Shown here in pieces: positions 2,576 through 64,000 of a stretch of DNA of 64,000 nucleotides. The stretch is taken from positions 1 to 64,000 of the forward strand of contig NZ_BBME01000014.1 in the NCBI RefSeq assembly GCF_000971395.1, written 5' to 3'. The position numbers were made by a program, and so were the translations under genes. The notes under the pieces are model-generated. The model had not been told where the DNA came from and did no database searches. It saw only the letters and a program-made list of their open reading frames with translations. Position 1 is the first letter of the stretch; the number at the start of each line of letters is the position of its first letter. Source of the DNA: Demequina iriomotensis. Lineage in GTDB: Bacteria > Actinomycetota > Actinomycetes > Actinomycetales > Demequinaceae.

Positions 2576-4090
2576 TCAGCGCGCGGGTCCGCCGTCCTCG
2601 GGCCGCGTCACGGGCTCCCAGATGTCGGCGGGAAGCGCGGGCTGGTCCGGCTCGGGAGCGGCCGCCGATCCGTCGGTCTGCCCGCCGATGCCCTCCGGCT
2701 CCGCCGCGCCGGCCCCCGCCGCGCTACCCTCAGCCTCGTCGGCGCCGGCCTCCGGCCGCTCAGGCGCCGCCGCGCGTGCGATGACCGTGAGCTCGTCGAG
2801 GTTGCGGTACGCCTGGTGGATGAGGTCCGTGGGCCGCACGACGGCCGGCTCGACCGCCTCGCGCACCGCCTCGCGCCCGAGCCGCAGCATCTCCTTCTGG
2901 ATCGCCGCGGCGCGCACACGCCGGCGGAACAATGGCGCGTGATCCGCGACGGGCCACACGACGGCCGCGAGCGCGCGGTCCACGAGCACGGTGAGCTCCT
3001 CGGCCGGCGTGATCGCCTCGTCGATGACCACGCGCCACTGCACGGGAAGGCCCTCGGAGGCAGCGTCCACCCAGTCGAGCCGCTCCCGGTCGACCACCTC
3101 GAGCCGCATCGGCTCCTGGCGCGGCACGGATGCGGCGCGTCCCGCGACCACCGCCGCCGCAGCCTCCGCGCGGGCGTCGACGCCCGCGGCCTTGGCGAGC
3201 GAGCCGACCAGCTCGGCGACGTCGGGCAGCTCGGGGTCGGCGTCGCGAGCGAGCGCGCGCTCGAGCGTGCGCCCGGCGTCCACCAGATCGGCCGCGACCG
3301 CATCGGCCGCGACGGACCGGGCCTGCACCGCGCCCTCGAGCTCGGCACGCAGCACGTCGACCCCCTGGCCCGTCCGCGCGCTCACCGGCATGACCGGCAC
3401 GGAGTGCATGCCGTCCTCGGCGAGCAGCCGCTGCAGGTCGCGCGCGACGTCCCAGGCATCCTCCGTGCTGAGGCGGTCGACGTGGTTGAGCACCACGAGC
3501 GACGGCTGGCCCGTCGCGGAGGCCTCGCGCAGGTAGCCCTCGTGAATGGCGTTGTCGGCGTACTTCTGCGGGTCGACCACCCACACCAGCAGGTCCACGC
3601 GCGGCAGGATCCGGTCGACCACCTCGCGATTGTGCGGGTTGACCGAGTCGTGGTCGGGAAGGTCGAGCAGGATCAGCCCCGTGAGGGTCGGGTCCTCCGC
3701 GAGAGGCGTGTCGTCACGCCGCAGGCGGCTGTCGACCGAGACCCCGAGCCAGTCGAGCAGGGCATCCGCACGGTCGTGCCCCCACACCGCGGCGCTCACG
3801 TGCGACGTGGTGGGACGCGCGACGCCCGAGACCGCGAACTCGACTCCCACGACCGCGTTGAACAGCGTCGACTTGCCCGAGCCCGTCCCGCCCGCGAGCG
3901 CGACCACGGTCCAGTCGATGCCCAGCTCGAGCCGCTCGTCGCAGCGGTCGACCGCCGCATGGAGCTCGTCGCGGATGGGCGCGGGGATGGCCTCGCGCGC
4001 CCACTCGAGCGAGGAGCGCAGCCTGTCGACGCGCTCGCGCAGCAGCGCGGTCTCGTCCCGCGGCCCGACCTCCTCGAAGCTCACGCTCAC
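2576..4090 (-). CDS. GTPase domain protein (YfjP/Era-like), second of a pair
   Basis: Predicted 504-aa GTP-binding protein. The G1 loop GGTGSGKS lies at residues 67-74, G3 is LLDLPDHDSV, and G4 is NHVD in VLNHVDRL. The C-terminal half is Ala/Glu-rich without clear membrane helices and ends in a low-complexity Ala/Glu/Pro stretch. The start is GTG at 4090, overlapping the upstream GTPase stop as GTGA, so translation is probably coupled; a much longer in-frame extension upstream is only the shadow of that gene. The pair may act together like heterodimeric dynamin-type or septum-linked GTPases, which is inference. No experimentally defined function is known to me. Confidence 0.85.
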   Translation of the reverse strand: MSVSFEEVGPRDETALLRERVDRLRSSLEWAREAIPAPIRDELHAAVDRCDERLELGIDWTVVALAGGTGSGKSTLFNAVVGVEFAVSGVARPTTSHVSAAVWGHDRADALLDWLGVSVDSRLRRDDTPLAEDPTLTGLILLDLPDHDSVNPHNREVVDRILPRVDLLVWVVDPQKYADNAIHEGYLREASATGQPSLVVLNHVDRLSTEDAWDVARDLQRLLAEDGMHSVPVMPVSARTGQGVDVLRAELEGAVQARSVAADAVAADLVDAGRTLERALARDADPELPDVAELVGSLAKAAGVDARAEAAAAVVAGRAASVPRQEPMRLEVVDRERLDWVDAASEGLPVQWRVVIDEAITPAEELTVLVDRALAAVVWPVADHAPLFRRRVRAAAIQKEMLRLGREAVREAVEPAVVRPTDLIHQAYRNLDELTVIARAAAPERPEAGADEAEGSAAGAGAAEPEGIGGQTDGSAAAPEPDQPALPADIWEPVTRPEDGGPAR

Positions 4091-5676
4091 AGCAGCCCCC
4101 TCAGCTCCGCGCGGCGCAGGCGGATCTTGGCGGACGAGTCGGGCATGAGCGACGGGATGTCGGTCGGCTTCATCATGTCGAGCGACTCGCGGTTGACGCA
4201 GTGGCGGCGCGCCGCGTCGAGCTCCGCGCGCGCCTCGTCGACCGCATCGCCCACCGCCTGCGACGTCACGATCATGAGCGCGGTGCGCGCCTGCTCGATG
4301 CCGAGGGCGGCGCTCGCCAGCGTGGTGGTGAGGCCCGGCTCGCCGATCACAGCGATGCCGTGCTCGGCGCCCGGAAGCTGCAGCACGATCTCCTGGCACC
4401 GGTGCACCCAGCGCCGCGCCGCATCGGCCGCCTGGCGCTCGCGCGCCTGGCGGGCGTCGCGCGGGTCGCGCCGCTCCGCGAGCCACGGCCCCACTCCCGT
4501 CTCGGCGCGCCGCAGCGCGTCCTCCATCGCCTCCGCGACGGACGATGCGGCGAAGACCAGTCGCGACTCGACGGCTTCGAGCAGGTCGCGGTAGACAGCG
4601 TGAAGCAGCTCGTCGCGCTGCTCGCGTGCGTGGCGCCGGCGCACCCAGCGCGTGTTGCGCAGCTTGAAGAGCGCACCGCCGTCGGCGGTCGCCTGCTGCC
4701 AGCGTGCCGTGAGGGCGCCGGTCGGGATGGTCTCCCACCACCGCTCCCCGCCCTCCTGGGACACCTGCGCCGCGGCGCGGCGGACCTCGGAGCGCACGTC
4801 CTTCGCGGCCGCCGACTGATCGTCCATCGCCTCCGCGAGGGTCTCGAGCCACTCCTTGAGGGACTCGGCCGAGCCGTGGAGCGTGCGCTCGACGATCGTC
4901 GTGGCCGAGGCGGCCGCCACCGAGTCGAGCCACCGGCCCAGCCCGCCGACCACGTCGCGGGGCACCGTCGCCTGCCGCGTCGGGTCCTCGGGGATGACGA
5001 ACAGCGGAAGCGTCTCGAGGTGCTCGGAGGCGAGGCGGTCGACCAGCTCGCGCCGCACCTGCGCCGCCACGTCGACGGTGACGCGGTTGAGCACGATCGC
5101 GATGGACGCGCCGCGGTCCGCACCCCCGCGCAGCGCCTGCCACGGCACGGCGTCGCCGTAGCGCGCGGCGGTGGTGACGAAGATCCACAGGTCGGCCGCC
5201 TCCATCATGAGGTGCGCGATCTCGCGGTTCTCCCCGCTGATGGAGTCGAGGTCAGGCGAGTCGACGAGCGCGAGGCCTCGCGGCATCGCCTCGGTGGCGA
5301 TCACCTTGCAGCGCTGCGCCACGTCGGTGAGCACCTGGGTGTCGAGCGGGTGGTGGAACAGATGGGGCACCCGGGTGGTCGGGCGCAGCACGCCCGACGG
5401 CGTGAGCTGCTCCCCTACCAGGGCGTTCACGACCGTCGACTTGCCGGCGCCGGTCGAGCCCGCCACGACCACGATGGCCGGCGAGGCCTCCTCGCGCACG
5501 CGCGGGATGAGGTGATGGTCGAGCTGATCGAGCATGCGCCGGATGGTCTCGCGGGCGTCCTCGACCCCGGCAGTCGGCAGGGGGAGCTGGACCCCCGCGA
5601 CCACGCGGCGGGTGTCGACCAGGGCATCGAGAAGGTTGCCGGGGTACGACCACGTCTTGATGGGTCGCATGCTCAT
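4087..5676 (-). CDS. GTPase domain protein (dynamin/Era-like), first of a pair
   Basis: 529-aa GTPase with G1 GSTGAGKS at residues 73-80 (AGSTGAGKSTVVNAL), G3 VDSPDLDS and a G4-like NRVTVD; the usual NKxD is replaced by NRxT/D, as often in this family. The ATG at 5676 is chosen because GAGAGG lies upstream and the residues before it look non-coding; ATG 5670 is an alternative. It is followed at a 4-nt overlap by a related but clearly diverged GTPase. The two share the phrases AG(S/G)TG(A/S)GKST and (V/L)xxLxxLPDxDS-type switch regions, pointing to an old duplication. The cellular role is unknown. Confidence 0.85.
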   Translation of the reverse strand: MSMRPIKTWSYPGNLLDALVDTRRVVAGVQLPLPTAGVEDARETIRRMLDQLDHHLIPRVREEASPAIVVVAGSTGAGKSTVVNALVGEQLTPSGVLRPTTRVPHLFHHPLDTQVLTDVAQRCKVIATEAMPRGLALVDSPDLDSISGENREIAHLMMEAADLWIFVTTAARYGDAVPWQALRGGADRGASIAIVLNRVTVDVAAQVRRELVDRLASEHLETLPLFVIPEDPTRQATVPRDVVGGLGRWLDSVAAASATTIVERTLHGSAESLKEWLETLAEAMDDQSAAAKDVRSEVRRAAAQVSQEGGERWWETIPTGALTARWQQATADGGALFKLRNTRWVRRRHAREQRDELLHAVYRDLLEAVESRLVFAASSVAEAMEDALRRAETGVGPWLAERRDPRDARQARERQAADAARRWVHRCQEIVLQLPGAEHGIAVIGEPGLTTTLASAALGIEQARTALMIVTSQAVGDAVDEARAELDAARRHCVNRESLDMMKPTDIPSLMPDSSAKIRLRRAELRGLL

Positions 5677-5837
5677 GCGACGGCGCACCCTCTCAGAACC
5701 ATGCGTCAAGCGTAGCGCGGGGGCCATGTACCAGGCGGCACGGGAGGCGATGGCGCGGCTTCAGCGCCCGCACGCGCACCGCGCCTCGGCCCGCCCGCGC
5801 GGTGGCACTACCCTGGTGACCGCGGCGACCACCGCCG

Positions 5838-51652: not shown

Positions 51653-52924
51653 ATGTCATCCGCGCGTCTGCCCTCCACCCCGGTCCAGCAGGGAACCACC
51701 CGCATCGTCGGCGCCACCGTGATCGACGGCACCGGCGCCGGGCCTCGTGTCGCCGACGTCGAGATCGTCGACGGCAGGATCGCCGCGATCGGGGTGGGAC
51801 CGGCCGCCGCCCGCGCGGACGCGACTTTCGACGCCGACGGGCTCTTCCTCACGCCCGGCCTCGTCGACACGCACGTCCACCTCACCATGCCGAACGGCTC
51901 CACCGAGGAGGCCGATCGGCTCAAGTTCATGGAGGAGCACGCCTTCGCGACCGCCGAGTCGATGCGCCTCACCCTCGAGGCGGGCGTCACGGCCGCCCGC
52001 GACCTCGCGGGTCTCACTCCCGGCTACCGACGGGCGGTCGCGGCTGGGCTCATCGCCGGCCCCCGCCTCCACGTCGCGATCACGATGCTCTCCCCCACCG
52101 GCGGCCACGCCGACCCGGTGCGCGCCAACCGAAGCCTGGCCGCGTACACCGACTTCGAGCCGATCCCCTCGGTCGGGGTGGTCGACTCCGACGACGAGGT
52201 GGTGAAGGCCATCCGGACGCTGGTGCGCACGGGCGCCGACGTGGTGAAGATCTGCACCACGGGAGGGATCAGCACGCCCGACGACAGCCCTGACGACCTG
52301 GGCGTCCCCGAGCGGCAGGTGCGACTCATGGTCGCCGAGCTCGCGCGCCGCGGCGGCCGGCCCATCGCGGCGCACGCGCAGGGCAACGAGGGGGCACTCG
52401 CCGCGGTGCGCGGCGGCGTGACGAGCCTCGAGCATGGCTACGAGATGTCCGACGAGCTGATCGAGGCGATGCTGCGGCGTGGCACCACCCTGGTGCCGAC
52501 GCTGTCCACGCTGTCGATGTCGCCCGACCCCGCCCGGAAGCCACCGCAGGTCGTGGCGAAGAAGCTCGAGTGGCAGAAGCGCGGCCGCGACTCTGCGCGC
52601 CGCGCGATCGAGGCGGGCGTGCCCGTGGCCATGGGCACCGACGCCGGCATCCACCCGCACGGGAGGAACGCCGCGGAGATCGGCCACCTCGTCGACGCCG
52701 GGATGACACCGCTGCAGGCGCTCCACGCATGCACGATGCAGGGAGCCCGTCTGCTCGGGCTCGCCGACCACCTGGGCTCCGTCGAGGCGGGCAAGCTCGC
52801 CGACGTGGTGCTGTGGGACGTCGATCCGCTGACGGACCCCGGCGCGATGGTCGAGGCGGTCCACGCGCGAGCCGTGCTCCAGGCCGGCCGCGCCGCGAAG
52901 GACCTCGACGGCCGGATCGGCTGA
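51653..52924 (+). CDS. Amidohydrolase family protein (prolidase/imidazolonepropionase-like)
   Basis: 423-aa metal-dependent hydrolase. Ligands: HVHL (HxH, about residues 74-76), a candidate carboxylated Lys in ADVVKICTTGG, His in AAHAQG and LEHGYEM, and Asp in MGTDAGIHPHG. Binuclear-zinc members with this pattern cleave Xaa-Pro or other amide bonds. GAAGGGA lies before ATG 51653, with TAGGCT about 35 nt upstream. It is convergent with the nitrogen locus; a role in that pathway is possible but not shown. Confidence 0.88.
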   Translation: MSSARLPSTPVQQGTTRIVGATVIDGTGAGPRVADVEIVDGRIAAIGVGPAAARADATFDADGLFLTPGLVDTHVHLTMPNGSTEEADRLKFMEEHAFATAESMRLTLEAGVTAARDLAGLTPGYRRAVAAGLIAGPRLHVAITMLSPTGGHADPVRANRSLAAYTDFEPIPSVGVVDSDDEVVKAIRTLVRTGADVVKICTTGGISTPDDSPDDLGVPERQVRLMVAELARRGGRPIAAHAQGNEGALAAVRGGVTSLEHGYEMSDELIEAMLRRGTTLVPTLSTLSMSPDPARKPPQVVAKKLEWQKRGRDSARRAIEAGVPVAMGTDAGIHPHGRNAAEIGHLVDAGMTPLQALHACTMQGARLLGLADHLGSVEAGKLADVVLWDVDPLTDPGAMVEAVHARAVLQAGRAAKDLDGRIG

Positions 52925-52949: not shown

Positions 52950-54203
52950 TCAGGCGGCGGGCGGCGGGACGGCGTGCTCGAGCGCGGCCGGGCGAGCATC
53001 GTGCGCGCGCTGTGCCGCGACCCTGCGCGACGCGATCCAGGCGACCGCCGCGCCCAGCGCCGACAGGAGGAACAGCGCCCCCGCCGTCAGCGGCAGCGAT
53101 GCGAGCCCGCCGGCGTCGACCTGAGCGGCCGCGACGGCCGCGCCGAGCGACGATCCCGTGAAGATGACCGACGAGTTCACCGCGACGAGGAGCGTGAGGT
53201 GCCTGCCGGAGTGGCCGATGATCAGCGACTGCAGCGGCGGGTTGATGGCCCACGAGCAGAAGCCCCAGACCAGCAGGAACGCGGCCGCCTGCCACGCCGT
53301 GTCCACGATCATGAGCCCCGCGACCGCGGCCGCCGCGGCCGCCGCGACCACCACGAGCGCCCGCGCGGGTCCCACCCGATCGGCGATCGCGCCCAGGAGC
53401 GCGTTGCCGGCGAGACCGGCGAGCCCGTAGCAGAGCAGCAGGAGCGACAGCGGGGTGCCGGTCGCACCCACCGCGTCGGTGAGGAACGGCGAGACGAAGG
53501 TGTTGAGGCCGCTCGTCGCGGCACCCTCCATGGCCGCGGTCGCGAAGACGGCCCCGAGCGTGATCCACGCCCACGTGCCGAGCGCACCGGACATGCCCCC
53601 CGCCGCGTGGCTCGCCCGCGCATCGGCCACCAGTCCGGCCTGCCAGCGCGACGCGCGCAGCGCCACGAGCGCGACCACGACGAGCAGGATCGCCACCGCG
53701 ATGAACGAGGCACGCGCGCCGATCGCGCCCGCGAGGGTGTTGCCCAGCGGAGCGCCGATGAGCGACGAGACGACCATGCCGCCGAACGAGATCGACAGCG
53801 CGCGCGACCGGAGCGAGGGCGCGACGATCGACCCGGCGTGGACGGTGCACATCGGCACCACCCCCGCGACGGTGATCGCGTGCGCGATCCGGGCGGCCGC
53901 CAGCTGCTCGGCGGATCCGGCCGCCGCGACGGCGAGCAGCGTCACCGCCTCGAGCGCGAGCGCGATGGTGAGCACCGTGTAGGGGCTGATCCGGCGCACC
54001 AGGATGGCGAGGGTCGGCGCGGCGACCGCGTACGCGAGGCCGAACACCGCGTTCGAGCGCCCGATGTCGCCGATCGAGATCCCCGTCTCCTCGGACAGCG
54101 CCGGGAGCACGCCGGGGACCAGCATGTTGCCCAGCGTCGCCGCGAACACCCCCGACGCGAGGATCCACAGCGTGGTGCGCGCACGACGGTCGATGCCGCT
54201 CAC
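52950..54203 (-). CDS. MFS transporter
   Basis: 417-aa major facilitator with 12 hydrophobic segments; N-terminus RARTTLWILASGVFAATLGNMLVPG and the inter-helix motif LRSRALSISFGGMVVSSLIGAPLG resemble sugar/drug-efflux type DHA1 members. GTG 54203 overlaps the isochorismatase stop (GTGA). As last gene of the nitrogen locus it could export a product or import the substrate. Confidence 0.87.
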   Translation of the reverse strand: MSGIDRRARTTLWILASGVFAATLGNMLVPGVLPALSEETGISIGDIGRSNAVFGLAYAVAAPTLAILVRRISPYTVLTIALALEAVTLLAVAAAGSAEQLAAARIAHAITVAGVVPMCTVHAGSIVAPSLRSRALSISFGGMVVSSLIGAPLGNTLAGAIGARASFIAVAILLVVVALVALRASRWQAGLVADARASHAAGGMSGALGTWAWITLGAVFATAAMEGAATSGLNTFVSPFLTDAVGATGTPLSLLLLCYGLAGLAGNALLGAIADRVGPARALVVVAAAAAAAVAGLMIVDTAWQAAAFLLVWGFCSWAINPPLQSLIIGHSGRHLTLLVAVNSSVIFTGSSLGAAVAAAQVDAGGLASLPLTAGALFLLSALGAAVAWIASRRVAAQRAHDARPAALEHAVPPPAA

Positions 54204-54790
54204 ACGCGCTCGACGGACTCGAGCCACTCCATCGTCTCGGCGGACGTGACGAGGGACCGGCGCTGCATGTACGCGATCATGTCGAGCGCATCGTCGTGGG
54301 CCTGCTGGGAGGAACCGTGCACCACGTCGGTCACGACGTTGAGGAACAGGTCGCGCTGGTGCGCGTCGACCGCGGTGTAGAGGATGCAGATGTCCGTGAA
54401 GCCGCCGATGAGGATCACCGAGTCCGCCTTGTACGCACGCAGGACGATGTCGAGCTGCGTGCCGAAGAAGCCCGAGTAGCGGCGCTTGCGGATGTGGAAC
54501 TCGTCGGGCGTCGGCTTGAGCCCCGACGCGAGCTCCGTGTACGGGCTGCCCTCGATGCAGTGCGGGCCCTCGGAGCCGTCCATCTCGCGGCCCATGTCGA
54601 TGAGGTGGGGCTTGTGGACCTCCTGGATCCACACGACCGGGACGCCCTTCTCGCGGGCCAGGTCGACCATCGCGACCGCGCGGTCGCGCTGCGTGCGCAC
54701 ATCGAAGCCGTCCTGCTGGCCGGGGCTCCCGTCGAGCGGGCCTCCCTGGAAGTCGACGACGACGAGGACGGGGTTGCCGTGGATGTTCAT
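54200..54790 (-). CDS. Isochorismatase-fold cysteine hydrolase 1
   Basis: 196-aa cysteine hydrolase. The catalytic triad is visible as Asp in VLVVVDFQGG (residue about 14), Lys in IRKRRYSGFFG and Cys in GGFTDICILYTAVDA. This fold includes nicotinamidase, N-carbamoylsarcosine amidase and biuret hydrolase. It is about half identical by eye to the neighbour at 54805-55473 (both contain QEVHKP(H/S)LID and KRRYSGF(F/Y)GT). ATG 54790 with GGGAG upstream. Given AtzF in the same locus, hydrolysis of a ureide such as biuret to allophanate is a reasonable guess. Confidence 0.87.
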   Translation of the reverse strand: MNIHGNPVLVVVDFQGGPLDGSPGQQDGFDVRTQRDRAVAMVDLAREKGVPVVWIQEVHKPHLIDMGREMDGSEGPHCIEGSPYTELASGLKPTPDEFHIRKRRYSGFFGTQLDIVLRAYKADSVILIGGFTDICILYTAVDAHQRDLFLNVVTDVVHGSSQQAHDDALDMIAYMQRRSLVTSAETMEWLESVERV

Positions 54791-54804
54791 GTGGTTCTCC
54801 CGTC

Positions 54805-55473
54805 TCAGCGCTTCAGTTCCATCGCGTCGGCGCCCGGCATCGGGGCGTCCGGCAGCGAGTCGAGCCACGCGTGCGCGGCATCGGCCGTCACCAGCGAGTC
54901 GCGCTGGAGGTACTTCATGGCCCGCAGCGCCGCATCGTGCGCCTTGTCGGACGATCCGCCCACGAGGTCGCTGACGGTGCGGAAGCGATAGTCGAGCTGG
55001 TGCGCGTCGACCGCCGTGTAGTGGATGCACACGTCGGTCAGGCCGCCGATCATCACGATGGTGTCGGTGGCGTAGCCCTTGAGCACGATGTCGAGCTCGG
55101 TGCCGTAGAAGCCCGAGTAGCGGCGCTTCTGGACCAGGTACTCGTGCGGCAGCGGCTCGAGTCCCGGGTACAGCTCGGTGGTCTCCCAACCCTCGACGCA
55201 GTGGGCGCCCTCGGCGCCGTCGAGCTCGCGGCCGATGTCGATCAGCGACGGCTTGTGGACCTCCTGGAGGAACACGACGGGCCGGCCCTTGGCGCGGAAC
55301 GCGTTCACCAGGTCGATCGCGCGCTGACGGCGCGCCTGCTGGCCCGTCATCCCGCCGAGGGTCGACACGTGCGGCGTCGCGCCTCCGCCCTGGATGTCGA
55401 CGACGAGCAGGGTGACGTTGCCGACGGGCGTGAGCGCGTCGTGCGGGGACCAGTCGGTCACCTGGAGCGGCAT
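54805..55473 (-). CDS. Isochorismatase-fold cysteine hydrolase 2
   Basis: 222-aa paralogue of the next gene, with an N-terminal extension of about 20 aa. Triad: Asp in LLVVDIQGGG, Lys in VQKRRYSGFYG, Cys in GGLTDVCIHYTAVDAHQ. ATG 55473 lies 16 nt after the upstream permease gene with AAAGGACCCCCC upstream. The conserved pair suggests two related substrates or a heteromeric enzyme. Confidence 0.87.
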   Translation of the reverse strand: MPLQVTDWSPHDALTPVGNVTLLVVDIQGGGATPHVSTLGGMTGQQARRQRAIDLVNAFRAKGRPVVFLQEVHKPSLIDIGRELDGAEGAHCVEGWETTELYPGLEPLPHEYLVQKRRYSGFYGTELDIVLKGYATDTIVMIGGLTDVCIHYTAVDAHQLDYRFRTVSDLVGGSSDKAHDAALRAMKYLQRDSLVTADAAHAWLDSLPDAPMPGADAMELKR

Positions 55474-55489
55474 GGGGGGTCCTTTCGGT

Positions 55490-56488
55490 TCAGGAGAGGC
55501 GGACGCGGGGGTCGACCGCGGCGAGCGCGACGTCGACGAGGGTGTTGAGCACCACGTAGACGGCGCCGAGGATGAGGCAGACCGCGGCGATCGCGGGGAA
55601 GTCCCCGACGCCGATCGCGCCGGAGAGGTAGGAGCCGAGGCCGTTCCACGAGAACACCTGCTCGACCACCACGAGGCTCGACACCATGAAGCCCGCCTGC
55701 ACCGCGAGCAGGGAGAGCGCGGGCGAGGAGGCGTTGCGGAGGGCATGGCGGCGGACGATGGTGCCCTCGTTCTCGCCGAGCGCGCGAGCGGTCCGCGCCC
55801 ACGGCGAGGACAGGGACGACGAGATGCCGTCGGCCAGCACGCGCGCGAGCGCGACACCCGCGCCGACCGAGGCCGCGAGCGCGGGCAGGAGCAGGTGCTG
55901 GATCGCGTCCCACGTGTAGGTCGGGCTCGCGTGGAGGATCCCGTCGATCACGTAGAAGCCGGTGCCGTCCTCGTACGGACCGTACGAGGAGCGGCCCGCG
56001 GCCGGCAGCACGCCGCCGAGCCACTTGTAGAACACGAGCACCGAGAGCATCGCGATGAGGAACGAGGGCGCGGACGCCGCGGAGAAGAACACGAACCGCA
56101 GGAACGCGCCGACGCGTCCGGGGCGCGAGTACAGCGACGCGAGCGACACCCCGATGACCACGGTGAGCATGAGCGCCCAGCCGGCCAGCTCGAGCGTCGC
56201 CGGCAGCCGCGAGGACAGCTCGTCCGCGATGGGCCGCTTGGACGCGAGCGAGATGCCGAAGTCGCCGTGCACCGCTCCGCCGAGGAAGCTCGCGAACTGC
56301 ACCGGGACCGGGTCGTCGAGCCCGAGCTCCTCACGCGCCGCGGTCACCGCCTCGGCGCTCGCGTTGACACCCACGTAGGTCCGCACGGGATCGGAGTCGG
56401 CGACCTTGCCCAGGGTGAACACCAGCAGCGTGAGGAAGAACAGCACCACCACGAGCGAGCCGAGTCGCTTGGCGACGAACACCAGCAT
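55490..56488 (-). CDS. ABC permease, DppB-like
   Basis: 332-aa permease of the oligopeptide/nickel family: one N-terminal helix, a periplasmic domain of about 70 aa, then five helices; the loop SSPWARTARALGENEGTIVRRHALRNASSPALS corresponds to the EAA motif. ATG 56488 is used; a GTG at 56494 overlapping the upstream stop is an alternative. Pairs with the DppC-like permease. Confidence 0.9.
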   Translation of the reverse strand: MLVFVAKRLGSLVVVLFFLTLLVFTLGKVADSDPVRTYVGVNASAEAVTAAREELGLDDPVPVQFASFLGGAVHGDFGISLASKRPIADELSSRLPATLELAGWALMLTVVIGVSLASLYSRPGRVGAFLRFVFFSAASAPSFLIAMLSVLVFYKWLGGVLPAAGRSSYGPYEDGTGFYVIDGILHASPTYTWDAIQHLLLPALAASVGAGVALARVLADGISSSLSSPWARTARALGENEGTIVRRHALRNASSPALSLLAVQAGFMVSSLVVVEQVFSWNGLGSYLSGAIGVGDFPAIAAVCLILGAVYVVLNTLVDVALAAVDPRVRLS

Positions 56489-56490
56489 GG

Positions 56491-57352
56491 TCACACACCC
56501 GTCCGCCGGAGGACCACGCGCAGGGCGTCGCCGGCATAGTTGAACACGAACGCGACGAGGCCGATCGTGACGCTGGGGAGCACCGCGACCCACCAGGCGT
56601 TGAGGAAGTACTTCATGCCGTCCGACGCCATGCGCCCCAGCTCGGGGGCCGGCGCGGGCGTGCCGAGGCCGATGAACGAGAGCGCGGCGAGCGTCATGAC
56701 GACGGCGCCGATGTCGAGGCTCGCGGTCACCACCACGGTCGGCATGACCGCCGGCACCACGTGGCGCCACAGGAGCCGCCAGCCGCGCACCCCCGACACC
56801 CGCGCGGCCTGCACGTGCGGGAGCGCCACCACGCGGCGCACCTCGCCGCGCACCAGGCGGGCGTAGAGCGGCCACCACACGACGATGATGCCGATCATGG
56901 CGGACCCGAGCGACTGCCCGATCGCGGCGGCGATCGCCATCGCGATGATCATCGCGGGGAACGCGAGGAACAGGTCGGTGAACCGCATGAGCGCCGAGTC
57001 GAGCCACCCGCCTCGGAAGCCTGCGACCACCCCGATGAACGTGCCGATCGCGGCGGACACGGCCGTGACGAGGACTGCCGCCAGCAGGCTGCGCTGCATG
57101 CCCGCGACCAGCCGGGTCGCCATGTCCATGCCGAGCACGTCGGTGCCGAGCACGTGGCCCGAGGACAGCGGCGGCAGGAGCTGGGAGCCCGAGGGGATGA
57201 TCGGGCTGTACGGCATCAGCGTGGGCCCGATGATCGCGACGAGGACGATGGCCGCCATCGCGATGAGCGAGGTCCTCTCCCCCGGCCCGAGCGCGGACCA
57301 TGCGCTGTCGCGGCGCGCTGTCGGCGCCGCCTCGACACGCTCGAGCGTGCGC

Positions 57353-57369
<17 letters not shown>
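56491..57369 (-). CDS. ABC permease, DppC-like
   Basis: 292-aa permease with the OppC-type N-terminal helix (SLIAMAAIVLVAIIGPTLMPYSP), the HVLGTDVLGMDMATRLVAG signature, and the EAA loop LPHVQAARVSGVRGWRLLWRHVVPAVMP. ATG 57369 overlaps the ATPase end by 17 nt. Confidence 0.9.
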
Positions 57370-59071
<1,702 letters not shown>

Positions 59072-59099
59072 GGGGCCACTCCTTCACCAGGGGGGCGGG

Positions 59100-59139
59100 C
59101 CTCGTGGCGGCGGCAGGGGGGATGGCCGCCGCCACGAGG
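59100..59139 (-). terminator. Intra-operon hairpin after the SBP gene
   Basis: A 15-bp perfect stem (59100-59114 with 59125-59139, 10-nt loop) lies between the SBP stop and the ATPase start. It is likely a partial terminator that lowers expression of the downstream genes. Confidence 0.7.
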
Positions 59140-59159
59140 ATCCCGCGGGGGGATGGGTC

Positions 59160-60743
59160 CTACTGACCCGGGGACAGCTGCGTGAAGTCGAAGGTGATGC
59201 CCAGCAGCGGGTAGCTCGCCGAGTCCGCACCCGTGATCGAGGCCTGGAACGCGGCCGAGACCTTGAGGTCGGCGACGGTGTAGTAGTCGCCGGAGCCCGC
59301 CACCAGGGAGGTCACGTCACCGTAGAGCTCGTGGTCGCCGGTCTCGACCGCCTGGTCCAGCGCGGCGTCGAGCCCGTCGATCTCCGGGTAGAACAGGTTG
59401 AGCCCGCCCTCGGAGGAGTACAGGAGACGTGCCCAGGTGTCCGGGTGGGCGGCGTCGGGGAAGATGCTCATGAGCGTGATGTCGGGAGCCTTCTCCGGGT
59501 CGAACACCGAGGACCAGTAGGCGCTCGACTCGAGACCGACCGACTCGGCCTTGATGCCCACCGTGTTGAGCTGGGCCGCGAGGTTGTCGGCGATGTCCTG
59601 ACCACCCGGCACGTAGGACGGGTAGCTGATGGTGATCGACTGCCCCGCGAGGCCGCCCTCGGCGAGCGCCGCGAGGGCGTCGGCGTCGTACGTGATGCCG
59701 GTCTGGTTGAGCGAGGAGTCGACCATGGTCGACGGGAAGACCCCCGTCGACGTGGTGCCGAGGTCGCCGTAGACCGACTGGACGATGCCGTCCCAGTCGA
59801 CGCCGCTGAGCAGCGCCTGGCGCGTCTCGGCATCGGCGAGGATCTCGTGGCCCGGGTTGAGGTACACGACGGGCGCCATCATCGACGGGTAGGTGTACGC
59901 GTGGAGGGCGTCGTTCGCGCTCAGGGCGTCGAACAGCGGCTTGTTCGCGGAGCCGATGTAGCCGTCGAGCTCGCCGCTCTCGAGCTGCAGCTGGATCGTG
60001 TTGGTCGAGTCGAGGATGTGGAACTCGATCGACTCGTAGCCGCCGGTGTCGCCCCAGTAGGACTCGTTCGCAGCGAGCTGGTAGCTCACACCCTCATCGA
60101 ACTTCGCGTACTGGAACGGGCCGGTCCCAGCCGAGTTCGCGGCGAACCACTCCGCATCGTCCCCATGCGCCGTCAGCGCCTCGGGCGAGATCATCTTGAG
60201 ACCGAAGGGCGAGGCGAGGTAGTCGAGGAACGCATCGTTCGGCGCGTCGAGGGTGAAGACCACCTCGGTGTCCGACGGCGTCTCGATCGAGGCGATCCCC
60301 CCGACCATGTAGCCCGGACCGGAGGCACCTTCCGCCACCATGCGGTCGACCGACGGCTGGACGGCGGCCGAGGTGAACGGGGTGCCGTCCGCGAAGGTCA
60401 CGCCGTCGCGCAGCGTGAAGGTGTACGTGAGGCCGTCCTCGGACACGGTCCAGTCGGTCGCGAGCGACGGCACGATCTCCGCCTCCTCGGTGCCGGTGGC
60501 GTACTTGAGGAGGCCCTCGTAGGCGGCGAGGACCAGGTTCATCTCGGAGCCCGAGTAGGCGGAGCTCGGGTCGGGTGCGGAGATGTCCGAGGACAGGCCC
60601 ATGTCGAGCGCGGTGTCGAGGTCGGCGGCGTCCGAGGAGCCGGCGGACTGCCCGGGAAGGGTCTCCTCGGCGCTCGAGCACGCGGTCAGGCCGAGCGCGA
60701 GAGCGGCGGCTCCGGCGAGGGCGAAGGTGGTGCGGCGGTTCAC
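59160..60743 (-). CDS. Family 5 extracellular solute-binding lipoprotein
   Basis: 527-aa SBP_bac_5 (DppA/OppA) protein. Signal peptide with lipobox LTAC (about residues 19-22). Core motifs: PSLATDWTVSEDGLTYTFTLRDGVTFADGTPF, GTGPFQYAKF and NPDTWARL-like AHPDTWARLL. GTG 60743 has GAAGGAG upstream. Family members bind peptides, nickel or small cationic ligands; its place beside UAAP/AtzF genes suggests a nitrogenous ligand. It is first in its transcription unit, behind an AmtR-like box. Confidence 0.92.
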   Translation of the reverse strand: MNRRTTFALAGAAALALGLTACSSAEETLPGQSAGSSDAADLDTALDMGLSSDISAPDPSSAYSGSEMNLVLAAYEGLLKYATGTEEAEIVPSLATDWTVSEDGLTYTFTLRDGVTFADGTPFTSAAVQPSVDRMVAEGASGPGYMVGGIASIETPSDTEVVFTLDAPNDAFLDYLASPFGLKMISPEALTAHGDDAEWFAANSAGTGPFQYAKFDEGVSYQLAANESYWGDTGGYESIEFHILDSTNTIQLQLESGELDGYIGSANKPLFDALSANDALHAYTYPSMMAPVVYLNPGHEILADAETRQALLSGVDWDGIVQSVYGDLGTTSTGVFPSTMVDSSLNQTGITYDADALAALAEGGLAGQSITISYPSYVPGGQDIADNLAAQLNTVGIKAESVGLESSAYWSSVFDPEKAPDITLMSIFPDAAHPDTWARLLYSSEGGLNLFYPEIDGLDAALDQAVETGDHELYGDVTSLVAGSGDYYTVADLKVSAAFQASITGADSASYPLLGITFDFTQLSPGQ

Positions 60744-60799
60744 TGCTGGCTCCTTCGAAGAGAGTTCGGGGGGCCGTTCCGTGGAACGGTACCGCGAAC

Positions 60800-60813
60800 C
60801 TATCGGTCAATAG
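60800..60813. promoter_or_regulatory. AmtR-like nitrogen-control operator
   Basis: CTAT-CGGTCA-ATAG matches the CTAT-N6-ATAG core of the corynebacterial AmtR box. It lies 57 nt before the SBP start, in the gap after atzF. The same gap has the inverted repeat CCGTTCC-GT-GGAACGG (60774-60789) and ACACGG/CCGTGT pairing near 60815-60835 that may terminate atzF transcripts. Confidence 0.5.
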
Positions 60814-60835
60814 TTACACGGGATCGCGGGCCGTG

Positions 60836-62590
60836 TTACGACTGCGTTTCGCCCGTCTGGGAACGCAGCCAGGCGAGCCAGTCGCCCGAGGCCGTGATGT
60901 CGATCGCGCCGTCGGTCGCGTGCGGCTCGCACAGGAATCCGTTGACGACGCGTCCGTCCTCGAGGGCGACGCTGCCGATGGCCATCGGAGAGGGGATCTC
61001 GTCCACGAAGGCACCGAATCCCGCGGCGGGGAGCCGCCACACCTCGCCGAGGATCGCACCGCCCGTCGAGGCGGTCCTGATGAGCCCTGGCTTGGGGGGA
61101 ACCGTGCCCAAAGCGTACATCTGGTACTCGCTCACGGTGCGCGCACGCCCGAGCAGCCGGGCTCCTCGGTCCGAGAGCTGGTGGTGAAGAGGCTGCCCCT
61201 CGCGGTGCGCGCCGATCACGAACACGTCGAGCTCGTCCGGCTCGGCGCCGTCCCCACCGCGCGCGGCGACGTCCGTGCGCGACGGGCCCGCCTCGACCGC
61301 GGCGGAGATCCGGCGCGCGAGCGTGAGGAGGCGCGCGTCGCTGAACGCGTGGCCCGTGAGCATCGCGCCGAACGCGTCCGCGCCTGCGCGGCCGGCGGGC
61401 AACGCGACGGCGGCCATGTCGAGGAGGTTCGCGAAGTTGGTGAACCTGCCCATGCGCGAGTTCGCGCCGACCGGATCCGCCGCCACCTCGGCGAGGGTGG
61501 GATGCCACGTGGTGGTGGGCGTGAGCACCGCGGCGGCATCGGACAGCAGCTCGGACGCCGCGGCGCGGTACGCCTCGAGCGTGCGCTGGTCGGCGAAGAG
61601 CTCCGACGCCGAGCGTCCGCCGCCCGCGAGGATGATGCCCGCGACCGTGGGGTCGAGCGCCTCGCCGATCGCGTCGCGGTGCGCCTCGATGTGGGCGCCC
61701 ACCGCCGAGTACCGCTCCGCCACGAAGGAGGACTCGTAGAGCATGCGCGCGGCGTCGAGCAGCGGGGCGATCGACCTCTCGACGACCTCGATGCCGGCCG
61801 CCGCGGCCGCCGCGACGACCCGGTCGAACGCATCGGACCATCCCGGAGCCAGGGCGCCCAGGTCCGCCTCCGTCGGCACGATGACGCGCATGCGCGCACG
61901 GGAGGCGAGCGCCGTGCCGACGCGTGCGCGGCGCGACAGCGGGTCCTCCCGATCGGGACCTTCCATGAGCGCGACCGCGGCGGCGGCGAGGTCCGGGTCG
62001 GCGGAGAACACCGTCACGCAGTCGAGCGAGGCGCATGCCGGCACCACGCCGGTGGTGGGCACCAGGCCGCGCGTGGGCTTGAGGCCCCACAGCCCGTGCA
62101 GCGCGGCGGGCACCCGGCCGGAGCCGGCGGTGTCGGTGCCGAGCGCGAGGTCCACGAGGCCGAGCGCGACCGCGACGGCGGAGCCCGAGCTCGATCCGCC
62201 GCTGATGCGCGTCGCGTCCGTGGCGTGGCGCACCGCACCGTGGGGCGAACGGGTCCCGACGAGCCCCGTCGCGAACTGGTCGAGGTTGGTCTTCCCGACC
62301 ACGATCGCACCGGCCGCGCGCAGCCGCGCGACCGCGGGCGCATCTGCGGCCGGCGCGTAGGCGTAGGTCGGCGCGGCCGCGGTGGTCGGGCATCCTGCGA
62401 CGTCGATGTTGTCCTTGACCGCCACCAGCCGGCCGGCGAGCGGGAGACGGGCGCCGGCCGCGACGGCCGCGTCGACCTCCGCCGCGGCGGCCCTGAGCTC
62501 CGCCGCGGGGACCAGGTGGATCCACGCCTCGGGCCGCTCCGTCGTCGCGATCGCCGCCGAGAAGCGCGCCACCGCATCGGCCGCGCTCAC
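60836..62590 (-). CDS. atzF: Allophanate hydrolase
   Basis: 584-aa amidase-signature enzyme converting allophanate to ammonia and CO2 (via N-carboxycarbamate). The Ser-cisSer-Lys triad is visible: Lys in VAVKDNIDVAG, cis-Ser in ISGGSSSGSAVAVA and nucleophilic Ser in GTDTAGSGRVPAALHG. The C-terminal domain typical of AtzF follows (EYQMYALG, ILGEVWRLPAAGFGAFV, PMAIGSVALEDGR and VNGFLCEPHA). GTG 62590 overlaps the UAAP2 stop (GTGA). Its partner upstream enzymes supply allophanate. Confidence 0.94.
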   Translation of the reverse strand: MSAADAVARFSAAIATTERPEAWIHLVPAAELRAAAAEVDAAVAAGARLPLAGRLVAVKDNIDVAGCPTTAAAPTYAYAPAADAPAVARLRAAGAIVVGKTNLDQFATGLVGTRSPHGAVRHATDATRISGGSSSGSAVAVALGLVDLALGTDTAGSGRVPAALHGLWGLKPTRGLVPTTGVVPACASLDCVTVFSADPDLAAAAVALMEGPDREDPLSRRARVGTALASRARMRVIVPTEADLGALAPGWSDAFDRVVAAAAAAGIEVVERSIAPLLDAARMLYESSFVAERYSAVGAHIEAHRDAIGEALDPTVAGIILAGGGRSASELFADQRTLEAYRAAASELLSDAAAVLTPTTTWHPTLAEVAADPVGANSRMGRFTNFANLLDMAAVALPAGRAGADAFGAMLTGHAFSDARLLTLARRISAAVEAGPSRTDVAARGGDGAEPDELDVFVIGAHREGQPLHHQLSDRGARLLGRARTVSEYQMYALGTVPPKPGLIRTASTGGAILGEVWRLPAAGFGAFVDEIPSPMAIGSVALEDGRVVNGFLCEPHATDGAIDITASGDWLAWLRSQTGETQS

Positions 62591-63267
62591 GCCGCCACCG
62601 CCGGGTCCGTCACGATCACGCGCAACGGGGTCGGGTTGAAGTCGTTGCACGGGTTGTTGACCTGAGGGCAGTTGGAGATGACGACGAGGACGTCACGCTC
62701 GGCGCGCAGCGCGACCCGCTTGCCCGGAGCCGACATGCCGTCCACGATGCCGAGGGTCCCGTCCGCCTCGACGGGCACGTTCATGAACCAGTTGATGTTC
62801 GACACGAGGTCGCGCGGGCCCAGGCCGTGCTTCGCGCCCTCGAGCAGGAAGTTCTCGCGGCACGCGTGGTGGAACAGCGTGTGGTGCCCGTAGCGGAGCG
62901 TGTTCGACTCCTTGGAGCAGGCCCCGCCGATGGTGTCCTGGCGCTCGACCTCATTCCCCACGACGGTCATGAGCGCGGCTCCCTCCTGGTCGCGCAGGAC
63001 CGAGCCGTCCACCAGGTAGGCGTTGCGCTGCGCGGCGAGCGTCGCCTGCGCGCTGTAGCGGACGTCGTGGTCGGACGCGTCGTAGATGAGGCAGTCGCCC
63101 GACTGGTTGCCGCCGACGTCGACGAGCGTGAGCACGTGACCGGCGCGGATCGGCGCGGACCAGCCGGCTCGCGGAGCGATCTCCTGATCGAGGACGATCG
63201 CGCCCTGAACGTACGGCTCGGAACGGTCGAAGTACTCGGCCTCGTACGTGGCCCACGTGACGGTCAT
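62587..63267 (-). CDS. Urea carboxylase-associated protein 2 (DUF1989; carboxyguanidine deiminase subunit)
   Basis: 226-aa DUF1989 protein. It carries the UAAP2 stretches LTLVDVGGNQSGDCLIYDA, DTIGGACSKESNTLRYGHH, HACRENFLLEG, VSNINWFMNVPV and SNCPQVNNPCNDFNPTP. UAAP1/UAAP2 heterodimers were shown to act as carboxyguanidine deiminase (CgdAB), turning carboxyguanidine into allophanate and ammonia. ATG 63267 overlaps the UAAP1 stop (ATGA), giving a tightly coupled UAAP1-UAAP2-AtzF unit. Confidence 0.93.
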   Translation of the reverse strand: MTVTWATYEAEYFDRSEPYVQGAIVLDQEIAPRAGWSAPIRAGHVLTLVDVGGNQSGDCLIYDASDHDVRYSAQATLAAQRNAYLVDGSVLRDQEGAALMTVVGNEVERQDTIGGACSKESNTLRYGHHTLFHHACRENFLLEGAKHGLGPRDLVSNINWFMNVPVEADGTLGIVDGMSAPGKRVALRAERDVLVVISNCPQVNNPCNDFNPTPLRVIVTDPAVAA

Positions 63268-64000
63268 CGGATCCCCCTGGCGAGAAGGTGCTGCTGGGTG
63301 TTGAGGTAGGCGCGCGTGCGCTCGGGCGTGGCGGTCCACCACGGGTCGGAGGCGGACGATGCGGCGGCGGCCCAGGCATGGACGCGCACGGGGCCCGTCC
63401 GGTAGCCCTCGGCGGGGTCCAGCGGGTGCGCGGCGTTCGCCACGAGCACGGTGAGGGGCATCTCCGCGACCAGGTCGACGGTCGCGCCCGCGCCGCCGTC
63501 GCCGGTCCACTCGAGGGCGCCGTCCGGCGCGACCCTCACACCCTTGAAGAAGGACACGCTCGGCGGCACGTCACGCGGCGTCAGGCCCTCCTTGGCCGCG
63601 GCGAGGAGCAGCAGCTCGCGGCCCGCCGCGGTGGCGGTGTGCGCGGCGCCCGCGCCGTAGCGCTCGATGTTCCCGGCGATCGTGGTGACGCCGCAGAACG
63701 CGTCGTGGTGGCCGCCCGCAGCGTCGGCGACCACGGTCGCGAGCACGCGCCCGTCGCCCGACAGCAGCGGGTGGCCGGCACCCAGGTACGCCTGCCACGG
63801 GATCTTCTGGGTGTCCGCGACGTTGAGCCGCTCCCCCGGGTTGAGGGCGCTGAGCACCACCACGTGGGCGCACGCGTCTCCGGTGACGTCCTCGAGACGG
63901 ATCCGCGTGCCCCGCGCCACCGTCATGTGCGTGTAGCCCGGTCCGGCGACGGTCTCCGCCCACACGAGCGTGGACGGATCGACGTCGGCGGGCGTGTACG
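63264..64000 (-). CDS. Urea carboxylase-associated protein 1 (DUF1989), 5' end outside the window
   Basis: At least 244 codons; the frame stays open to the right edge (YTPADVDPSTLVWAETV precedes the first in-window GTG at 63965), so the true start is beyond 64000. UAAP1 marks: GTRIRLEDVTGDACAHVVVLSA, PGERLNVADTQKIPWQAYL, GRVLATVVADAAGGHHDAFCG and DVPPSVSFFKGVRV. It is probably the partner subunit of UAAP2. A guanidine/urea carboxylase gene is expected nearby but is not in this window. Confidence 0.9.
   Translation of the reverse strand, partial: YTPADVDPSTLVWAETVAGPGYTHMTVARGTRIRLEDVTGDACAHVVVLSALNPGERLNVADTQKIPWQAYLGAGHPLLSGDGRVLATVVADAAGGHHDAFCGVTTIAGNIERYGAGAAHTATAAGRELLLLAAAKEGLTPRDVPPSVSFFKGVRVAPDGALEWTGDGGAGATVDLVAEMPLTVLVANAAHPLDPAEGYRTGPVRVHAWAAAASSASDPWWTATPERTRAYLNTQQHLLARGIR

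What the first reader, a model, noticed from the sequence alone, without database searches (positions are those of the whole stretch)
54200..64000. Allophanate-centred nitrogen locus with UAAP1/2, AtzF, a Dpp-type importer and paired isochorismatase-fold hydrolases
The minus strand carries UAAP1-UAAP2-AtzF (overlapping stops and starts), then SBP, fused DppD-DppF ATPase, two permeases, two paralogous cysteine hydrolases and an MFS. UAAP1/2 (DUF1989) with AtzF is the CgdAB-AtzF module of guanidine degradation. Two extra hydrolases of the fold that includes biuret hydrolase could feed a second substrate into the same allophanate node, and a family-5 importer rather than the usual NitT-type one is unusual. 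The combined layout may be a broader route for guanidine/biuret-like nitrogen.
Basis: partly seen in the sequence, partly recalled or inferred. Interest (0 to 1): 0.75.

Follow-up and report, generated by a model that had tools for sequence, protein, structure and literature searches.

The report
Guanidine operon with paired cysteine hydrolases
An actinobacterium carries a complete guanidine-degradation gene set plus an importer and two sister hydrolases that probably feed a related, still unidentified compound into the same pathway one step later, which in some relatives seems to replace the energy-costly first enzyme.

Summary
The gene layout is confirmed. Past the window end lies the missing enzyme, a biotin carboxylase with both guanidine-carboxylase signature aspartates, so the core is a known guanidine carboxylase - CgdAB - AtzF route, here in a Demequina-like actinobacterium. 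No guanidine riboswitch was found. A TetR-type operator stands before four promoters: carboxylase, UAAP1, importer and a metal amidohydrolase.

The unusual part is the importer plus hydrolases A and B. They are not biuret hydrolases: the essential Lys is Tyr, and scores lie far below the family cut-off. Their subfamily tracks CgdB: 19 of 19 genomes in an order sample, but 8 of 13 in a class sample. The five sampled genomes with CgdB but no detectable carboxylase all carry the hydrolase. This suggests that it makes carboxyguanidine directly, e.g. from guanylurea. In 4 of 19 A/B pairs A has lost its catalytic Cys while B has lost a Tyr next to the position that the partner subunit supplies in related enzymes, which suggests one heteromeric enzyme.

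The substrate is unknown and nothing was assayed.

The parts
63264..64000 (-). UAAP1 = carboxyguanidine deiminase subunit (gene continues to 64127 of the contig)
   Evidence: TIGR03425 278 bits, cut-off 206; start
62587..63267 (-). UAAP2 = carboxyguanidine deiminase subunit (CgdB)
   Evidence: TIGR03424 303 bits, cut-off 285
60836..62590 (-). AtzF, allophanate hydrolase with C-terminal AH_C domain
   Evidence: TIGR02713 640 bits, cut-off 511; PF21986
60798..60815 (.). TetR-type operator-like site before the importer operon
   Evidence: 2 mismatches to ACCTWTCGNNCGAWAGGT, 0 expected
59160..60743 (-). family-5 solute-binding lipoprotein of the importer
   Evidence: PF00496 229 bits; below the DppA and NikA cut-offs
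57353..59071 (-). fused DppD-DppF ATPase
   Evidence: two ABC_tran stretches
56491..57369 (-). DppC-type permease
   Evidence: PF00528
55490..56488 (-). DppB-type permease
   Evidence: PF00528, PF19300
54805..55473 (-). cysteine hydrolase A, isochorismatase fold, triad D26-K116-C149 intact
   Evidence: PF00857 on a 193-residue fragment
54200..54790 (-). cysteine hydrolase B, paralogue of A (54% identical), triad intact
   Evidence: PF00857
52950..54203 (-). MFS transporter, overlaps the end of B by 4 bases
   Evidence: PF07690
51605..51622 (.). TetR-type operator-like site before the amidohydrolase
   Evidence: 2 mismatches, 0 expected
51653..52924 (+). metal-dependent amidohydrolase related to arginine carboxypeptidases and ochratoxinase-type amide hydrolases
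   Evidence: PF01979; PDB relatives; beside importer + hydrolase in 16 of 34 module loci

Best explanation
This is a TetR-controlled regulon for nitrogen from guanidine and from one guanidine-containing amide. Guanidine is carboxylated by the ATP-dependent carboxylase, deiminated by CgdAB to allophanate and split by AtzF to ammonia and CO2 (a known route; membership shown by signature residues and cut-offs). The Dpp-type importer brings in a second compound. Hydrolases A and B, acting as one heteromeric cysteine amidase with composite active sites, cut a terminal amide next to the guanidine group and release carboxyguanidine plus ammonia. Guanylurea is the simplest fitting substrate. Carboxyguanidine goes straight to CgdAB and by-passes the carboxylase. 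Shown: gene set, carboxylase signature, operator-like sites, statistical linkage of the hydrolase subfamily with CgdB, genomes with no detectable carboxylase, complementary loss in A and B in other species. Inferred: TetR binding, substrate, product, heteromer in this organism, importer specificity.
For: Carboxylase at contig 65737-69276 has Asp at KlUA 1330 and 1584 (criteria in passages of PMC11410670). Hydrolase and UAAP2 co-occur in 19 of 19 hydrolase-bearing genomes of an order sample of 396, against 45 of 396 overall, and in 25 of 26 genomes behind chosen hydrolase loci; in five order genomes they lie on different contigs. UAAP2-positive genomes without a carboxyltransferase match at E <= 1e-60: G277 (one contig), G360, G224 (88% complete), G540, G611, that is 5 of 84; all five carry the hydrolase and AtzF (p 0.0017). 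Microbacterium rhizomatis and Herbiconiux ginsengi have two UAAP1/2 copies, one beside the carboxylase and one beside importer-A-B-AtzF without it. Operator-like sites before four promoters. In 4 of 19 A/B pairs A lost Cys149 and B lost Tyr188, in 15 of 19 neither did; in TrtA/BiuH a Gln of that helix reaches into the partner's active site (PMC7948467, passages). GuuH, of the same fold, feeds guanidine degradation in Pseudomonas (PMC9800807, passages).
Against: In a class sample only 8 of 13 hydrolase-positive genomes have UAAP2. The five misses score 253 bits or less, but four of the eight positives score lower still than the best misses (221-237 bits), and genus g112 holds both kinds. One of the 26 chosen genomes (Streptomyces radicis, G064) has the hydrolase but no UAAP2. 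A and B are only about 30% identical to a tested guanylurea hydrolase and lack the Glu that it has at the BiuH Gln215 position. The dead-A pairs may stem from one lineage (tree). p values are not corrected for kinship, and the search profile was built from 8 genomes of the own genus, which supply 8 of the 19. Close homologues sit in unrelated-looking clusters with Rieske oxygenase and glutamine-synthetase-like genes. One genome of the own genus (G031) has importer and carboxylase but no A/B, so the importer may carry guanidine there. No structure model could be made.
Confidence: 0.5

Rival explanations
1. A and B release free guanidine (or a product that decays to it) and the carboxylase then takes it up, as described for GuuH in Pseudomonas mendocina. 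A and B are two separate homomeric amidases with different but related substrates.
For: Published GuuH pathway (passages). Carboxylase present beside the same operator-like sites here. Both triads are intact in the Demequina pairs.
Against: Genomes with no detectable carboxylase keep hydrolase + CgdAB + AtzF. In the 22 B rows of the tree each B has an A beside it, and complementary losses in 4 of 19 pairs argue for one enzyme.
Confidence: 0.25
2. Biuret/triuret route: A and/or B turn biuret into allophanate for AtzF.
For: Same fold. Weak hits of A and B to the BiuH model (59 and 55 bits). AtzF present.
Against: Cut-off is 370 bits. Lys145 of BiuH, whose change to Ala abolishes activity (PMC7948467, passages), is Tyr in both. 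A biuret route would need AtzF only, yet the subfamily tracks UAAP2.
Confidence: 0.08
3. The importer, hydrolases and amidohydrolase degrade a larger peptide-like guanidine compound (for example an N-acylguanidine or arginine-derived amide); guanylurea is not the natural substrate. This can be true together with the by-pass idea.
For: Dipeptide-type importer. Amidohydrolase related to arginine carboxypeptidases with the same operator-like site. Lactonase-like MBL protein next to the carboxylase. Related hydrolases beside Rieske, amine oxidase and amidases elsewhere.
Against: No direct evidence; the amidohydrolase was not found in 18 of 34 module loci within the stretches held.
Confidence: 0.35

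Closest known systems
Guanidine carboxylase pathway (GC-CgdAB-AtzF)
   Same: All enzymes present; carboxylase has both signature Asp; carboxylase, UAAP1, UAAP2 and AtzF over curated cut-offs
   Different: TetR-type operators instead of a guanidine riboswitch; Dpp-type importer; extra hydrolases, MFS, amidohydrolase and MBL protein
[quoted passage not shown]
   Same: Isochorismatase fold, D-K-C triad, Tyr three residues after the catalytic Lys, feeds the guanidine route
   Different: About 30% identity, far outside in the tree, no Glu at the partner-helix position, encoded here as an A/B pair, subfamily found with and without a carboxylase gene
[quoted passage not shown]
   Same: Fold and catalytic triad; AtzF in the same locus
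   Different: Lys145/Lys132 replaced by Tyr; Gln one residue later than the partner Gln; BiuH model cut-off not reached
3EEF, N-carbamoylsarcosine amidase related protein
   Same: Best solved-structure match of both A and B by sequence, shares the K-x-x-Y-S-G-F-x-G-T motif
   Different: Known here by its entry name only; no call established its function

Membership tests
Guanidine carboxylase | urea carboxylase family architecture (TIGR02712) | tested here: met
   1538 bits, cut-off 1304
Guanidine carboxylase | Asp at K. lactis 1330 (Asn in urea carboxylase) and at 1584 | tested here: met
   alignment to 5i8i, numbers counted by me from the printed ranges; motif GGMDFTGD; criterion in passages of PMC11410670
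Guanidine carboxylase | carboxylates guanidine in preference to urea | not testable with these tools
   needs enzyme assay
Carboxyguanidine deiminase CgdAB | both DUF1989 subunits, UAAP1 and UAAP2, side by side | tested here: met
   both over curated cut-offs
Carboxyguanidine deiminase CgdAB | place in the CgdA and CgdB clades of a DUF1989 tree | not tested
   no DUF1989 tree was built
Allophanate hydrolase AtzF | amidase plus AH_C domain, TIGR02713 over cut-off | tested here: met
Guanidine riboswitch regulation | guanidine riboswitch upstream | tested here: not met
   no Rfam match at E<=1 in L003 and L004 (34 kb); only tmRNA and four tRNAs in the window at gathering cut-offs
Biuret hydrolase BiuH | NF050097 cut-off 370 bits | tested here: not met
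   59.1 bits (193-residue fragment of A) and 55.5 bits (B)
Biuret hydrolase BiuH | second Lys (K145) three residues after catalytic Lys | tested here: not met
   Tyr in A and B
Triuret hydrolase TrtA | K132 and Q202 | tested here: not met
   K132 position is Tyr; a Gln lies one residue later than Q202 would
Guanylurea hydrolase GuuH | close relation to a tested GuuH | tested here: not met
   about 30% identity to the pMET-2 enzyme; very long branch apart in the tree
Guanylurea hydrolase GuuH | hydrolyses guanylurea | not testable with these tools
   needs assay
Dipeptide importer Dpp | SBP_bac_5 + two permeases + two ATPase domains | tested here: met
Dipeptide importer Dpp | DppA equivalog cut-off (dipeptide ligand) | tested here: not met
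   83 bits, cut-off 1005

The most novel reading that the evidence does not exclude
A and B form an obligate heteromeric cysteine amidase whose active site is shared between the subunits and which produces carboxyguanidine directly from a carbamoyl- or acyl-guanidine. This is an entry route into CgdAB-AtzF that needs no biotin, no ATP and no guanidine carboxylase, present beside the carboxylase here and, with a single hydrolase, replacing it in Cellulomonas, Jiangella and a Streptomyces.
Probability: 0.4. Interest if true: 0.75.

Novelty: new variant of a known kind. Interest (0 to 1): 0.6.

Why it matters
Guanidine riboswitches and carboxylases showed that guanidine is a real nitrogen source, but its natural precursors are largely unknown. 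A hydrolase subfamily that follows CgdB, with its own importer, points to such a precursor and makes the question testable: find the ligand of the binding protein and the product of A+B. CgdAB-AtzF operons without a carboxylase would also mean that UAAP1/2 genes do not by themselves predict growth on free guanidine. The A/B pair may be a clear case of complementary loss between paralogues that share one active site.

Tried and rejected
Biuret/triuret hydrolase: rejected on score and on the Lys-to-Tyr change. Guanidine riboswitch: searched, none. Urea carboxylase: rejected for this locus by the Asp signature; a second carboxylase of D. aestuarii (L124) has Asn and serves as contrast. Carboxylase overlooked in the carboxylase-free genomes: re-searched with the carboxyltransferase domain alone at E<=1e-15 and 1e-60. 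In G224, G277, G360 and G057-G061 only low-identity hits (36-43%), or none, remained; for G540 and G611 hits weaker than 1e-60 were not listed. Assembly gaps: G277 is a single contig, so absence there is hardly a gap; G224 is 88% complete and weak. The AtzF alignments of the second copies in M. rhizomatis and H. ginsengi carry stop codons inside according to (3 and 1 TGA). In the former an open frame of 570 residues covers AtzF, so the stops probably lie before its start; the latter was not followed up. Structure prediction of A with a 76-row alignment never started, so no fold search was made. The GC-frame gene caller mis-called some genes on the wrong strand; conclusions rest on tblastn. Before printing, tblastn hits covering 60 residues or fewer were dropped in those calls. 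One protein (L100, 568 aa as read) and any pMET-2 protein other than GuuH were left out of the tree. The 29 loci handed to one search were my choice out of 79.
Full report
WHAT IS THERE. Open frames and family searches give UAAP1, UAAP2 and AtzF with 4-base overlaps, then a family-5 solute-binding lipoprotein, a fused DppD-DppF ATPase, two permeases, two paralogous isochorismatase-fold hydrolases (A 54805-55473, B 54200-54790; 54% identical) and an MFS transporter (52950-54203). The window is bases 1-64000 of a 201,760-base contig in a 3.16 Mb genome. The nearest named locus is Demequina gelatinilytica (hydrolase A 96% identical), so the organism is probably a Demequina. In the 47 held genomes of its family the pair occurs in 9, always as two genes (one of the 9, G010, is 50% complete).

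THE MISSING CARBOXYLASE. Beyond the window (contig coordinates continue the window's) come the end of UAAP1 (64127), a divergent TetR regulator (64250-64888, +), an MBL-fold protein (about 64911-65735, -), and a 1179-residue biotin carboxylase / carboxyltransferase (65737-69276, -). It passes TIGR02712 (1538 bits, cut-off 1304). Aligned to the K. lactis urea amidolyase structure (residue numbers counted by me from the printed ranges), Asn1330 is replaced by Asp and Asp1584 is kept. These are the two criteria for guanidine carboxylase that I saw in passages of PMC11410670; the review PMC12186494 (passages) gives Asp against Asn for substrate choice. A motif search over all loci held at that time gave 23 matches, two of them from one gene (L123, L126); 22 have Asp, the exception being a second carboxylase of D. 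aestuarii (L124), which has Asn. The motif did not match in L112 or in the short proteins of L072 and L093. So the core is the known guanidine carboxylase - CgdAB - AtzF pathway.

REGULATION. No guanidine riboswitch or other Rfam family was found at E<=1 in the 34 kb of L003 and L004, nor in the window at gathering scores beyond four tRNAs and a tmRNA. Instead a near-palindrome lies between UAAP1 and TetR; generalised by me to ACCTWTCGNNCGAWAGGT it recurs with two mismatches just upstream of the carboxylase, of the binding protein and of an amidohydrolase gene at 51653-52924, where none is expected from shuffles; no site was found in L004. In other Demequina loci scanned (L023-L025, L027-L030 and L158 = G031, own genus) it precedes UAAP1 in 8 of 8 and the binding protein in 8 of 8. 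It precedes the carboxylase in 3 of 5 (L106, L108, L109; not L107, L158) and the amidohydrolase in 2 of 7 (L023, L024; not L025, L027-L030), plus the related metagenome locus L096. It also precedes the binding protein in M. rhizomatis, H. ginsengi, Kineosporia rhizophila and L143. It was not found at two or fewer mismatches in L026, L032, L033, L035, L042-L044, L049, L050, L057, L141, L144, L148, L151, L152, L154, L156. That enzyme's nearest solved relatives are amide hydrolases of the LlADH/ochratoxinase kind and L-arginine carboxypeptidases.

THE HYDROLASES ARE NOT BIURET HYDROLASES. They score 59 (193-residue fragment of A) and 55 bits (B) against the BiuH model with a cut-off of 370. In BiuH, Lys145 (three residues after the catalytic Lys) is essential (passages of PMC7948467). 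The tested guanylurea hydrolase from plasmid pMET-2 has Tyr there, as do 131 of 136 aligned rows, A, B and that enzyme among them. A and B are, however, only about 30% identical to it. It also has Glu where BiuH has Gln215, while A and B have a Gln one residue later, kept in 135 of 136 rows. Their subfamily is therefore a separate one for which I found no tested member.

LINK TO CgdAB. A profile of A and B found the subfamily (E<=1e-40) in 19 of 396 genomes of the order. UAAP2 was found in 45 of 396 of the same draw, and all 19 were among them (hypergeometric p 2e-20; by genus 5 of 5 against 11 of 109, p 4e-6). Eight of the 19 belong to the own genus, from which the profile was built; the p values are not corrected for kinship. 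In five of the 19 (G133, G172, G224, G237, G259) hydrolase and UAAP2 lie on different contigs. In a class sample of 394, 8 of 13 hydrolase-positive genomes have UAAP2 against 42 of 394 overall (p 7.5e-6; without the two members of the own order 6 of 11, p 2.5e-4). The five misses (G456, G479, G491, G697, G782) score 194-253 bits; the four genomes scoring 280 bits or more are all positive, the other four positives score 221-237. Of 29 hydrolase loci that I chose from the 79 found, partly for lacking UAAP2 nearby, 28 lie in 26 held genomes (L032's is not held); 25 of these 26 have UAAP2, the miss being Streptomyces radicis.

GENOMES WITHOUT A CARBOXYLASE. With the carboxyltransferase domain as query, 5 of the 84 UAAP2-positive genomes of both samples have no match at E<=1e-60: G277 (single contig), G360, G540, G611 and G224 (88% complete). 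All five carry the hydrolase (25 of the 84 do; p 0.0017) and AtzF. Among the chosen genomes G057-G061 (Streptomyces shenzhenensis, three Cellulomonas, Cellulosimicrobium) behave alike. By matching contigs and coordinates G059 is the same genome as G360, and G540 and G611 are Jiangella anatolica and endophytica. In Cellulomonas the order is importer - hydrolase - UAAP1 - UAAP2 - AtzF, except in G277, where no AtzF was seen in the stretch and AtzF lies elsewhere. In Jiangella UAAP1-UAAP2-AtzF stand together and the hydrolase is in a Rieske-type cluster. M. rhizomatis and H. ginsengi keep two UAAP1/2 copies, one with the only carboxylase found and one with importer - A - B - AtzF. Since this fold hydrolyses terminal amides (BiuH: biuret to allophanate), the parsimonious reading is guanylurea-type amide to carboxyguanidine, the CgdAB substrate, with no carboxylase needed. 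In the published Pseudomonas pathway GuuH is written as giving guanidine, which the carboxylase then uses (PMC9800807, passages). The by-pass is my inference. In the listings of eight full-text searches no title or abstract opening described it, and I saw only passages of seven papers (PMC9800807, PMC12186494, PMC12508155, PMC7948467, PMC12625717, PMC11647477, PMC11410670). The two primary papers on CgdAB and GuuH were not held, so they may discuss it.

A AND B AS ONE ENZYME. In the tree of 136 rows (121 different) all B proteins form one clade (22 rows, support 100/100), and each has an A beside it. In 15 of 19 distinct pairs both have the D-K-C triad and Tyr188. In 4 of 19 (M. rhizomatis, H. 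ginsengi, Nocardioides mangrovi, Kineosporia rhizophila) A has lost Cys149 (Ala, Ala, Ser, Thr), in the last two with most of the conserved segment 71-95 missing, while it keeps Tyr188 and Gln190; B keeps the triad but has Ser, Ser, Gln or His instead of Tyr188, which is Tyr in all other subfamily rows (Fisher p 2.6e-4). Position 188 lies 39 residues after the catalytic Cys; in TrtA and BiuH the Gln 40 residues after it comes from the other subunit and completes the active site (passages; the BiuH Cys number is deduced from the paper's paired numbering). Complementary loss of this kind is expected if only the B site works and is completed by A's helix, that is, an A:B heteromer. The four may descend from one event (their B proteins form one clade, 100/92; their A proteins 82/65, with long branches). 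In Demequina both triads are intact, so two working composite sites are possible there. No structure could be predicted.

THE IMPORTER. An importer close to this one lies beside the hydrolase in 34 of the 95 hydrolase loci scanned (two are second copies of the same stretch), with TetR in 28 and the amidohydrolase in 16 of the 34; some stretches end early. One genome of the own genus (G031) has carboxylase, TetR, UAAP1/2, AtzF and the importer but no A, B, MFS or amidohydrolase in the stretches read, near the same release-factor-like gene (name recalled) as in the window. Its binding protein is only 49% identical to ours, the other importer parts about 70%. Another (G011) has the enzymes without this importer within 20 kb. 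So the importer may serve guanidine when the hydrolases are absent; its ligand here is unknown.

VERDICT. The core is a known pathway. The new part is a hydrolase pair and importer tied to CgdAB, probably a second entrance at carboxyguanidine, with good evidence for the tie in the order, weaker in the class, fair evidence for the by-pass and for the heteromer, and none for the exact substrate.

Noticed in passing
L072 11654-13753; L093 about 3796-5775: Conexibacter and Patulibacter have, between UAAP2 and AtzF, a carboxyltransferase-only protein (699 aa in L072, CT_A_B + CT_C_D) without biotin carboxylase or biotin carrier parts; the hydrolase is in the same operon in L072 and on the other strand nearby in L093. 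Many class-sample matches also lie in frames of only 700-900 aa.
   Followed up: partly
L060, L066, L074, L084, L146, L147, L149, L150 and others: The same hydrolase subfamily sits in a conserved cluster with a Rieske oxygenase, ferredoxin reductase, glutamine-synthetase-like enzyme, phosphotriesterase-like proteins, aldehyde dehydrogenase and in some a copper amine oxidase: perhaps degradation of a larger guanidine compound.
   Followed up: partly
L148, L151, L152, L154, L156: A variant module TetR / DppDF-DppC-DppB-hydrolase-SBP-MBL; in G738 (L151) and G118 (L148) it lies near UAAP1, UAAP2, carboxylase and AtzF, in G479 (L154) the genome has no UAAP2.
   Followed up: partly
L124 (G051:C6:1790764-1794318): D. 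aestuarii has a second carboxylase with Asn at the 1330 position, i.e. urea type, besides its guanidine-type one.
   Followed up: no
contig 64911-65735 (L003 12911-13735): MBL-fold lactonase-like protein between the carboxylase and TetR, related to AHL lactonase and 4-pyridoxolactonase models but below their cut-offs; recurs in several other actinobacterial loci held.
   Followed up: partly
L103 and L104: Marine alphaproteobacterial plasmids carry related hydrolases (42-46% identical) behind a polar amino-acid type ABC importer; in L103 ornithine cyclodeaminase and, further off, amidinotransferase genes are annotated.
   Followed up: no
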